62,194 nucleotides of DNA from a bacterium. Its GTDB lineage: Bacteria > Fibrobacterota > Fibrobacteria > UBA11236. Both the position numbers and the translations under genes were made by a program. The stretch is from contig OMJM01000017.1 in NCBI GenBank assembly GCA_900299345.1, positions 1 to 62,194 on the forward strand. The letters are read 5' to 3'. The notes below the pieces were generated by a model. That model did not search any database. It was given only the letters and a program-made list of their open reading frames with translations, and had not been told where the DNA came from. This document shows positions 37,441 to 42,987 of this stretch, piece after piece (within the stretch, counting starts at the first letter, position 1; each line of letters begins with the position of its first letter).

Positions 37441-37766
37441 GCCAGACGCAGGTAACGTCCGGCTTCCGCGCCGATCCCGGCGGTGACGCCTCCCAAGGCC
37501 GTTGAGATCAGCACCAACCACCAGCCGCTGGGCAGACTGAATAATTCCGCGATGCGTCCGCCCAGCAACCCGTGATTTCCGATCTGATAGAACGCGGCAA
37601 CGCCACCCCACGCAAGCGCAGCGCCGCACGAGGTTGCGGAGAATAGCACGGAACGGGGTTCGGGCTTCCAGAGTCCCAACGCGAGCCCCACGATGGCGGG
37701 CCACCACCACGGCGATGCGAAACCTCCCAGAAGTGAAGCGATGAACGCAAGCAGGAACAGGATCAT
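37425..37766 (-). CDS. Small inner-membrane protein
   Basis: The 113-residue protein has three or four hydrophobic helices: the N-terminal LFLLAFIASLLGGFASPWWWPAIVGLALGL, SATSCGAALAWGGVAAFY and WWLVLISTALGGVTAGIGAEAGRYL. No family is recognised. Its start overlaps the acylase stop by 4 bases, so it is translated from the acylase transcript. Confidence 0.65.
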   Translation of the reverse strand: MILFLLAFIASLLGGFASPWWWPAIVGLALGLWKPEPRSVLFSATSCGAALAWGGVAAFYQIGNHGLLGGRIAELFSLPSGWWLVLISTALGGVTAGIGAEAGRYLRLAYNAK

Positions 37767-40258
37767 TTCGAACCTTTCAAAGTCAATGTGTAGGCGATGG
37801 AATCCGGCTGCTCGTCCGGACGCATCAAGAACAGCAGACGATAAGGTTTGCCCGTCAGCCAGTTGGTCACGAAGGCGTCATAATCCGGTGAACCGGGATT
37901 ACCGCTTTGCCCACCGGGATATCCGCCCGATGCCACAGGAGTTTTTCCGAGCTCCACGGCCATGCGCCACGACGGTCCATGTGAACCGCGCTGTGCGTTC
38001 AGACATTCCGCGCAACCATCTCCCGAAAGTTTTCCCGTTCCCAACGGAGCCAGACGCAGGAGATGGGGGATGGACAGGGGATGAACCTGATTCCATGCAG
38101 TGAAACTACCGTTCCCAGTTTGCAGGGAGGATTGCACCGCCTCCTCCAGTGCACCGCGCACCAAATCGCACGCTTTCTCCCGACGTGGAGTGCGGATGTC
38201 GTCGAACCAGTCCGAATTTGGATTGGAAGCCAACAGTGCGCGGGTCACAGGGTGTGACGGCCAGGCATAGTGCAAGGTGTCGCCTTCGAAATCATCGTCC
38301 CAGACTTTTGTGTAAAACCTTTTCCACCATAAATCAAAAAGAGCGGGTTCCGCCTCGGTGGCATGGTAGCGACCATCCCAGTGGCGCAACAGCTTTACGG
38401 CTTCTTGAGCGTTGGGTGACATCGAAACAGAATCCATGCAACCCAGTAGAAGAGGCAGGCTTTGTTCGGCGCGCAAGCTCTGGTTGTTTAACATCACCTC
38501 CCACGCCGAAGAAATGTCAGCCCCGTTCGTCGCCTCCATCAACCGATGCAATCGCCCCGCGCGTTCCGAGGGATAGAATCCCGAGCCCAGATAATACGGG
38601 TATGAGGAGTCAGTGACCTCCTGATTGGCGGAGGACAGCCATCCTCGTGCCGGATTATATGCCGAAGGCAGCAAAGAGTCCGGGATGTATGTACTCCAAT
38701 CGAAGTCCGAATCATTCTCGCGCAACACGGTGCGGCCTTGTCCGAAACGCTTGACAGGAATCCGTCCCTGATGCGTCAGTGCGATGTCTCCCGAATCAAT
38801 AAAGACGAAGTTTTGCGAGGGGCAATGCAAGGATCGTATCGCGGTACGGAAATCCCCGTAATCCTTGGCGGACAACATACGGAGAAAGGCTCCGATTTCG
38901 TTGGACGGTTGGAGCGCGATCCATTGTACTGCGTGCAAGGCCGGAACATTCGCATCCAGAGATTGCTCTCCGCTTTTCACGGGCACCGGGCCGAGATGTG
39001 TCCACAGTTGTGTGTCGATCACAGTCTTGCCACCGCGCATGGAAATCGTATCGAGTACAAACTTGGTTTCGCGCCACCGCCCGTTCCACCAGTAATGCGT
39101 CAGGCTGTCGTTCTGGAAGCGAAGCTTGTATACGTCAAAGACGTCGTCCATGCCATTGGTCACACCCCATGCCGCGTGCGAATTGAACCCTATGACGATT
39201 CCGGGTAGCCCCGGAACGCTGACGCCATATCCATTGATCGCTCCGCCTTGCAGTTGAACTTCATACCAGATGGAAGGCAAAGAAAGATCGAGGTGAGGAT
39301 CGTTGCCGAGAATGGGATGACCAGAAGCCGTCCGGGTTCCCGCGATGGCAAAATTATCCGACCCAGAACCCGGTTGCGGTGGGGGAAATGGGGAGATCCC
39401 CCCAGCCCCCGGAGGAGGGTGAGACGCAGAATAATCGTTCGTTGTTCGTAGGGGCGGATCGCTATCCGCCCTGACAGAGAGAGGCCCACTGGTGGCTGTG
39501 TCAAAAGGAGCACGAACCGAAAAAATTTCGGACGGCAAGATGGGCTCTGCGCCGGGATTGCGGAGTGGGAACAGTTCGGAGAAAAATTCCGAGCCGAATT
39601 TTTCCAGCGTACGAGTCAAGGCAACGTCATCCGTTCCCTTGGACAAGGTCCATTGCAGGTTCTTGAGCAACGCCACGCTCTTGAGCGGCGTCCAAGGCTC
39701 GGGTGCATAGTCGAGCAGTTTGAATTCGAGCGGGTAGTCGGCGCGCTTTAACGTCGCAATCCATGCGTTAACACCCGCGGCATAAGCCATGAGCGCAACG
39801 TTCGTCAGCGAATCCTTCTGCATTTCCTCGAGATCGGCTTGGGCCGACGAAGCCATGCCCAAACGTCGTCGCGACAGATCGAAGCGCAGCAGATCACTTC
39901 CCATCACCTCGGACAAGCGGCCCAAACCGGCGCGGCTCTGAATGTCCATCTGCCAGAGGCGATCGCGAGCCGTGGCGTAACCCTGCGCGAAGAACATTCC
40001 CTGCAAATCGTCACTGAACACATGAGGCACGCCGCGGTGATCATATTTCAAGGAGACGGAATTCAGTAATCCGCTCGCCGAAACGTCATGTCCCTTCGGC
40101 GAACGGATTTCCGCATTACGCCAGAACCCCTGGAACGGACTGAAGAATTTTCCCGGCGGCGGTACCGGACCGAGTTTGTGCCCCAGCAATCCAATCCAGA
40201 GCCAAAGCAGGGCGAGACGCCACGCGGCCCCGATTGCCATGCGCACCGGTTGCGTCAC
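37763..40258 (-). CDS. Penicillin acylase-family N-terminal nucleophile hydrolase
   Basis: This 831-residue precursor has an N-terminal hydrophobic signal/anchor (about 8-27), an alpha-chain region (RGVPHVFSDDLQGMFFAQGYATARDRLWQMDIQSRAGLGRLSE), a spacer, and the beta chain starting at the nucleophile Ser300 in GSGSDNFAIAG, followed by HPILGNDPHLDLSLPSIWYEVQL. This is the layout of penicillin/acyl-homoserine-lactone acylases, which cut themselves after folding in the periplasm and hydrolyse amide bonds. The substrate cannot be told from sequence. The spacer residues about 262-271 are encoded by a REP-like palindrome. The start overlaps the DinB-like stop. Confidence 0.9.
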   Translation of the reverse strand: MTQPVRMAIGAAWRLALLWLWIGLLGHKLGPVPPPGKFFSPFQGFWRNAEIRSPKGHDVSASGLLNSVSLKYDHRGVPHVFSDDLQGMFFAQGYATARDRLWQMDIQSRAGLGRLSEVMGSDLLRFDLSRRRLGMASSAQADLEEMQKDSLTNVALMAYAAGVNAWIATLKRADYPLEFKLLDYAPEPWTPLKSVALLKNLQWTLSKGTDDVALTRTLEKFGSEFFSELFPLRNPGAEPILPSEIFSVRAPFDTATSGPLSVRADSDPPLRTTNDYSASHPPPGAGGISPFPPPQPGSGSDNFAIAGTRTASGHPILGNDPHLDLSLPSIWYEVQLQGGAINGYGVSVPGLPGIVIGFNSHAAWGVTNGMDDVFDVYKLRFQNDSLTHYWWNGRWRETKFVLDTISMRGGKTVIDTQLWTHLGPVPVKSGEQSLDANVPALHAVQWIALQPSNEIGAFLRMLSAKDYGDFRTAIRSLHCPSQNFVFIDSGDIALTHQGRIPVKRFGQGRTVLRENDSDFDWSTYIPDSLLPSAYNPARGWLSSANQEVTDSSYPYYLGSGFYPSERAGRLHRLMEATNGADISSAWEVMLNNQSLRAEQSLPLLLGCMDSVSMSPNAQEAVKLLRHWDGRYHATEAEPALFDLWWKRFYTKVWDDDFEGDTLHYAWPSHPVTRALLASNPNSDWFDDIRTPRREKACDLVRGALEEAVQSSLQTGNGSFTAWNQVHPLSIPHLLRLAPLGTGKLSGDGCAECLNAQRGSHGPSWRMAVELGKTPVASGGYPGGQSGNPGSPDYDAFVTNWLTGKPYRLLFLMRPDEQPDSIAYTLTLKGSK
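39448..39475. repeat. REP-like palindrome inside the acylase gene
   Basis: GTA-GGGGCGGAT-CGCT-ATCCGCCC-TGAC contains a perfect 8-bp inverted repeat (39452-39459 with 39464-39471). GTAGGGGCGGAT...ATCCGCCC is a pattern commonly met as dispersed intergenic repeats. Here it lies in frame in a coding region, in the spacer between the alpha chain and the nucleophile serine. Confidence 0.6.
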
Positions 40259-40812: not shown

Positions 40813-40888
40813 TGGTGGAGATAAGGAGAGTCGAACTCCTGACCTTCTCATTGCGAACGAGACGCTCTACCAACTGAGCTATATCCCC
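40813..40888 (-). tRNA. tRNA-Ala (anticodon CGC)
   Basis: The minus strand gives a 76-base tRNA: acceptor GGGGATA/TATCTCC with the G3-U70 wobble pair that marks alanine, A73 and encoded CCA, D arm GCTCAGTTGGTAGAGC, anticodon loop TTCGCAA with anticodon CGC, and T arm AGGAGTTCGACTCTCCT. It reads GCG codons. Confidence 0.95.
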
Positions 40889-40981
40889 ACGAGGAAGCGC
40901 AATAGGAGCTTTTTTCCCGGAAATTGCCAAGCTCATCGGTGCATTTTTCCGCGCGCGCCGGAGTATATTTTCCACAAAAGG

Positions 40982-42987
<2,006 letters not shown>

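What the first reader, a model, noticed from the sequence alone, without database searches (positions are those of the whole stretch)
39448..39475. Intergenic-type palindromic repeat domesticated inside the acylase spacer peptide
Seen: a perfect GGGCGGAT/ATCCGCCC hairpin with the flanks of a common dispersed repeat is translated in frame as about ten residues (SVRADSDPPLRT), 30 residues before the nucleophile Ser300. Known: in penicillin-acylase precursors this spacer is removed during self-maturation. Inference: the repeat landed in the one part of the protein where extra residues are harmless, followed by a Pro-rich segment.
Basis: partly seen in the sequence, partly recalled or inferred. 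Interest (0 to 1): 0.55.

Follow-up and report, generated by a model that had tools for sequence, protein, structure and literature searches.

The report
Palindromic DNA repeat inside an enzyme
A short mobile-type palindrome that is scattered through this Fibrobacterota genome sits, in frame, in the floppy part of a penicillin-acylase-type enzyme, and the same kind of repeat also sits in several housekeeping proteins, as was known mainly from Rickettsia and a few other bacteria.

Summary
The hairpin is real: GTAG + GGGCGGAT-CGCT-ATCCGCCC at 39448-39471, in an 831-residue penicillin-acylase-family gene (minus strand), read as residues 261-272, 28 residues before Ser300. It is not chance: shuffled windows give none, and the genome holds about 30 related palindromes. 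Residues 255-294 are disordered in an AlphaFold2 model and none of 82 other orthologues has the segment, so insertion into an expendable spacer is well supported.

"Intergenic-type" and "domesticated" are not. Of 29 sites examined in this genome, 10 lie in family-supported ORFs (acylase, TldD, IleRS, IspG, Ddl, LplA, Fpg, a NosL fusion, an M16 peptidase N-terminus, a REP-transposase-like gene), 9 of 10 in one frame. A sister species carries other palindromes in the same acylase spacer and TldD linker, and IleRS shows reciprocal empty sites at 86% identity.

Best reading: a GTAG-type REP, a mobile passenger tolerated in loops and linkers, in the acylase probably cut away on maturation. The phenomenon is known (Rickettsia RPEs; intragenic GTAG REPs); here it is found in Fibrobacterota, with striking recurrence.

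The parts
37763..40258 (-). penicillin-acylase-family gene, 831 aa, GTG start; nucleophile Ser300 (codon 39359-39361)
   Evidence: ORF; Pfam PF01804 E 2.1e-186; alignment (S300 and N302 invariant in A2)
39448..39451 (+). GTAG tag of the repeat
   Evidence: GTAG tag as in GTAG REPs (PMC3733652, read)
39452..39471 (+). palindrome GGGCGGAT-CGCT-ATCCGCCC, perfect 8-bp arms
   Evidence: related copies in own genome
39443..39478 (-). repeat-derived peptide SVRADSDPPLRT, residues 261-272
   Evidence: same frame in 9 of 10 in-gene copies
39377..39496 (-). disordered spacer, residues 255-294 (pLDDT below 50), before the strand 299-305 that starts the beta chain
   Evidence: spacer length 61 here, 45-82 in other Fibrobacterota and 37-49 in 73 other orthologues
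39398..39418 (+). second C-rich motif CCCCCCAGCCCCCGGAGGAGG, read PPPGAGG; its counterpart is a dispersed repeat in sister species G002 but hardly in this genome

Best explanation
The segment is a copy of a GTAG-tagged palindromic repeat (REP class) that was inserted in frame into the acylase gene and has been kept because it fell in the flexible spacer between the alpha and beta chains. Shown: it belongs to a dispersed family, is in frame, lies in a disordered and hypervariable spacer, is missing from other orthologues, and related copies lie in other proteins. Inferred: that it arrived by transposition of single-stranded hairpin DNA by a REP-associated tyrosine transposase (a gene of that type, itself carrying a repeat, is present); that purifying selection left only copies in tolerant loops and in the mildest reading frame; and that in the acylase the peptide is cut out with the spacer during self-maturation, so the mature enzyme does not carry it.
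For: Site against shuffles: 2 against 0.00. Own-genome copies: 25 matches against 1 control; TAGGGGCG..CGCCC 34 against 9. Genus-level abundance: G002 93 matches against 1 control, G003 95 against 35, G001 11 against 4, while each of six genomes of the sister genus has 1-4, below its control. None of 9 Fibrobacterota and 73 other orthologues has SVRADSDPP. AlphaFold2: residues 255-294 below pLDDT 50 in a model with mean 83. In-gene copies at 10 of 29 sites examined, in ORFs with family support, 9 of 10 in one frame. TldD: the repeat lies in the linker between Pfam domains 1 (22-82) and 2 (118-226). IleRS: own and G002 share 539 of 624 aligned residues, and each lacks the insert of the other; solved IleRS sequences have a gap at the own insert. 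Transposase-like ORF: NF047646, 65.7 bits.
Against: The acylase spacers are too diverged for an exact empty site; in IleRS the net gain is 6 residues (18 nt), less than the 24-nt repeat, so the event is not a clean simple insertion. G002 has a different palindrome at about the same place in the acylase spacer, so an old shared palindrome that changed cannot be excluded. The PF01797 search of the own genome found nothing at E 0.001, and the one transposase-like ORF is below the NF047646 cut-off of 80, so an active mobiliser is not shown. Spacer removal was not tested.
Confidence: 0.8

Rival explanations
1. An old palindromic element entered the spacer in the common ancestor of this species and G002, and has since diverged into two different-looking palindromes at the same place (GTAG hairpin here; TGTTGGGGCGGTTT..AAACCGCCCCAACA around PPAGVGG in G002).
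For: Both begin TCTGT..GGGCGG at about the same position and both spacers share the PPxGxGG motif; the G002 palindrome has 14-bp perfect arms, which 0 of 3000 shuffles of that spacer reach.
Against: Loop contents, arm sequences and lengths differ; G001 and G003 have no hairpin with arms of 8 bp or more in the spacer; in IleRS the insert sites of the two species are clearly independent.
Confidence: 0.2
2. The hairpin has acquired a function: as an mRNA hairpin that tunes translation of the two chains, or as a peptide that tunes self-cleavage.
For: The 40-nt RNA around it folds at -16.6 kcal/mol; solved spacer-shortened cephalosporin acylase and MacQ mutants are among the fold matches (titles only), so spacer length has been of interest for maturation.
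Against: No conservation between orthologues; the same repeat type lies in many unrelated proteins.
Confidence: 0.08
3. Chance palindrome in a GC- and proline-rich linker.
For: A bare 8-bp hairpin with up to 3 mismatches is expected 0.59 times per window.
Against: With the GTAG tag the expectation is 0.00, and the genome has many related copies.
Confidence: 0.02

Closest known systems
GTAG-tagged REP elements, including intragenic ones (Di Nocera et al. 2013, PMC3733652; section 15 and passages read)
   Same: GTAG at one end of a 20-40 bp palindrome, many copies, TAG supplying the stop codon of flanking ORFs (7 of 29 entries have an ORF of at least 90 aa ending in it), copies in frame inside known genes, different repeats at about the same site of orthologous genes (Xanthomonas recB in the paper)
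   Different: The phyla that the paper lists for GTAG repeats do not include Fibrobacterota; here a third of the copies examined are inside family-supported ORFs; 'acylase' has 0 occurrences in the paper
Rickettsia palindromic elements (RPE) in protein-coding genes (Ogata 2002, Claverie and Ogata 2003: seen only as citations in PMC3733652)
   Same: Palindrome families inserted in frame into open reading frames that likely encode functional proteins
   Different: Different sequences and phylum; the paper files the intragenic R. conorii RPE-4 and RPE-6 with its repeats and calls RPE-1 longer; the unit here is a 24-nt core giving about 8-12 residues
REP-associated tyrosine transposases (RAYT, NCBIfam NF047646)
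   Same: A 198-aa ORF in the own genome matches at 65.7 bits, E 4e-18
   Different: Below the curated cut-off of 80, and it carries a repeat in its own reading frame

Membership tests
GTAG REP | GTAG at one end of a short palindrome | tested here: met
GTAG REP | many dispersed copies in the genome | tested here: met
   about 30 sites, a moderate number
GTAG REP | mostly extragenic | tested here: inconclusive
   10 of 29 examined sites inside family-supported ORFs; of 14 short-armed copies 9 are inside, of 14 long-armed copies 1
GTAG REP | cognate RAYT transposase | tested here: inconclusive
   none at E 0.001; one ORF, PF01797 25.4 bits over its cut-off of 23, NF047646 65.7 bits under its cut-off of 80
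GTAG REP | cleavage of the GTAG hairpin by the transposase | not testable with these tools
   needs biochemistry
RPE-like protein-coding palindromes | in-frame insertion in conserved genes, absent in orthologues | tested here: met
   (acylase, TldD, IleRS); other genes not compared
penicillin-acylase (Ntn hydrolase) precursor | conserved Ser at the start of the beta chain | tested here: met
   S300 invariant in A2; residue 1 of several solved beta chains aligns to query 300
penicillin-acylase (Ntn hydrolase) precursor | spacer removed by self-maturation | not testable with these tools
   needs expression and mass spectrometry

The most novel reading that the evidence does not exclude
This Fibrobacterota genus is a further lineage, beside Rickettsia, in which at least three unrelated palindrome families (GTAG type, CCCTTCGACAGGCTCAGGG type, C-rich type) repeatedly and independently seed the same protein linkers in different species, with a strongly preferred reading frame, so that mobile palindromes act as a standing source of new linker peptides in essential proteins.
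Probability: 0.5. Interest if true: 0.6.

Novelty: new member of a known kind. Interest (0 to 1): 0.45.

Why it matters
It gives a clean natural experiment on how mobile DNA is tolerated inside proteins: one repeat type, one preferred frame, hits in loops and linkers of essential enzymes, and sister species with reciprocal empty sites. The acylase case is the extreme one, since the inserted peptide probably never reaches the mature enzyme. It also warns annotators that motifs such as VGADGRPP or PSTGSG in proteins of such genomes are repeat-derived, not domain signatures.

Tried and rejected
Chance hairpin: rejected once the GTAG tag is included. Absence of a transposase: the PF01797 search of the own genome gave 0 matches, but a later family scan of the ORF around one repeat gave a REP-transposase-like hit, so one search missed it. 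Enrichment of hairpins in acylase spacers in general: not found; over the 83 distinct orthologues with spacer bounds, hairpins with arms of 8 bp or more are no denser in spacers (5, 0.46 per kb) than elsewhere in the genes (126, 0.65 per kb) (L137 dropped for lack of bounds, L062-L067 left out of the tally as duplicates of G002, G004-G006, G008, G009). Plasmid and viral collections: no match to the element. Solved D-Ala ligase and IspG sequences do not decide whether those regions are insertions, so for Ddl, IspG, LplA, Fpg, the NosL fusion and the M16 N-terminus I have position and frame only, no empty-site comparison. Two matches (L024, L041) were dropped before the count of 29 as likely chance matches. 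The M16 copy may lie upstream of the true start; the Fpg and LplA copies lie near the C-terminus. ORFs around L043, L307 and L314 overlap the repeat but were not counted as in-gene (L043 not scanned; in L307 the repeat precedes the matched domains; the Pfam family of L314 I took for an antisense artefact, from recall). The first alignment script used the wrong strand for some loci and was replaced.

The preferred frame is 9 of 10. With three equal frames the binomial chance of 9 or more in one named frame is about 4e-4, with two open frames about 0.01 (own arithmetic, not a call; the frame was named after seeing the data).

Full report
What is there. The window is a contig of a 2.24-Mb genome in 91 contigs. 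Relatives named in a genome scan are Fibrobacteres/Fibrobacteria MAGs; G002 is the record CANKII010000001.1, by its contig length, shared with L062. The gene is an 831-residue penicillin-acylase-family protein on the minus strand. The hairpin has perfect 8-bp arms at 39452-39471 and a GTAG at 39448. It is read as SVRADSDPPLRT, residues 261-272, and Ser300 follows 28 residues later. With the GTAG tag included, shuffled windows give no such site.

The spacer. In an AlphaFold2 model built on 31 sequences (mean pLDDT 83) only residues 255-294 and 785-789 fall below 50 in runs of three or more; a strand begins at 299. Foldseek and sequence searches place the protein with D-succinylase, cephalosporin acylase precursors and penicillin G acylases; residue 1 of several solved beta chains aligns to query residue 300. 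Spacer length, from the conserved P-I/V-x-P to the serine, is 45-82 in ten Fibrobacterota orthologues (61 here; 45 in G002 and G003) and 37-49 in 73 others (one locus, L137, dropped). No other orthologue has the segment: 0 of 9 Fibrobacterota and 0 of 73 others, of which the 60 residues before the serine were printed.

The repeat family. In the own genome GTAGGGGCGGATNNNNATCCGCCC with up to 3 mismatches has 25 matches against 1 for the reversed pattern, many sites being counted on both strands. TAGGGGCG..CGCCC has 34 against 9. The GTAG form of that pattern is abundant in G002 (93 against 1) and G003 (95 against 35), rare in G001 (11 against 4), and in each of six genomes of the sister genus the matches stay below their control. 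The copies fall in two forms. Of 29 entries examined, 14 have perfect arms of 15 bp or more; 13 of these 14 lie outside any ORF for which I found a family (not every small overlapping ORF was scanned), and the arms mostly run on into locus-specific complementary flanks. Of the other 15, one is cut by a contig end and 14 are short-armed; 9 of these 14 are inside ORFs with family support.

Copies inside proteins. They are the acylase, TldD, a NosL-domain fusion, the tail of Fpg, IleRS, the N-terminal region of an M16 peptidase, the C-terminal end of a lipoyl ligase, IspG, D-Ala ligase, and (long-armed) a REP-transposase-like ORF. In 9 of the 10 the core is read in the same frame, giving V-G/R-A-D/E..PP or close to it. 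The TldD copy lies in the linker between two Pfam domains.

Sister species. In G002 the TldD linker holds instead CCCTTCGACAGGCTCAGGG, read PSTGSG, a repeat with 46 matches in that genome against 0 control. The G002 acylase spacer holds a palindrome with 14-bp arms (0 of 3000 shuffles) around a C-rich motif whose pattern is itself dispersed in G002 (30 against 3 control). IleRS is the clearest case: 539 of 624 aligned residues are identical; the own protein has the GTAG-type insert (VGADGRPPVQ, net 6 residues) where G002 has none, and G002 has the CCCTGAGCCTGTCGAAGGG insert (VPEPVEG, net 6 residues) where the own protein has none. Solved IleRS sequences have a gap at the own insert. The G002 repeat also lies in ORFs matching UvrD, a class II aminoacyl-tRNA synthetase with an editing domain, a lipoyl ligase and a DmsC-like protein.

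Mechanism. The simplest account is dispersal of a REP-type palindrome with survival only where the protein tolerates it. The transposase step is inferred: a REP-transposase-like ORF exists but scores below the curated cut-off and itself carries a repeat. Removal of the peptide on maturation is inferred from the enzyme family. Nothing found supports the word 'domesticated'.

Comparison with what is known. Intragenic GTAG REPs, the TAG stop-codon habit, insertion within other palindromes, and different REPs at about one site in orthologues are described in PMC3733652 (section 15 and passages read), which also cites the Rickettsia RPEs; its authors suggest that such inserts may be neutral because they lie in flexible linkers or loops. 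The phyla it lists for GTAG repeats do not include Fibrobacterota. A search for Fibrobacter with REP/RAYT terms held 15 papers, 10 listed, each of those 10 with 0 occurrences of 'fibrobacter'; a search joining penicillin acylase, spacer peptide and palindromic-repeat terms gave no title on such an insertion among the 15 listed of 122; RepRanger (PMC12306157, passages only) has 0 occurrences of 'Fibrobacter'. So this is a new member of a known kind, with an unusually neat location and a strikingly high share of in-gene copies.

Noticed in passing
L011, L013, L017, L020, L027, L031, L315 and others (own genome), sites near 1501: Intergenic GTAG palindromes have perfect arms of up to 24 bp: beyond the shared core the arms continue with locus-specific complementary sequence, as if the repeat sat in the tip of an older hairpin or the palindrome had grown in place.
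   Followed up: partly
L038:1223-1819 (-), G000:C84: A 198-aa REP-transposase-like ORF (NF047646, 65.7 bits, cut-off 80) carries the GTAG palindrome in its own reading frame (GADFKSAPT).
   Followed up: partly
L302 (G002 IleRS gene): The CCCTGAGCCTGTCGAAGGG insert is flanked by complementary locus-specific arms ACTGCGG / CCGCAGT.
   Followed up: no
G000 contigs C26 and C69, ends (L015, L037): Two contigs end in or just after such palindromes, so the assembly breaks at them and copies are probably undercounted.
   Followed up: no
window 40977-41083: TPP riboswitch (RF00059, 69.4 bits) upstream of the 625-aa ORF at 41110-42987 (ThiC by its sequence, recalled); tRNA at 40816-40888 (-).
   Followed up: no
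L125 (Hymenobacter sp. BT188), about codon 6 of the open frame: A hairpin with 17-bp arms in the open frame that holds the acylase, probably upstream of the true start.
   Followed up: no
G002 genome, 30 matches of CCCCCCNNCCCCCGNNGGNGG with up to 2 mismatches: A C-rich hairpin family is dispersed in G002 but nearly absent from the own genome, where the acylase spacer holds the only perfect match.
   Followed up: partly
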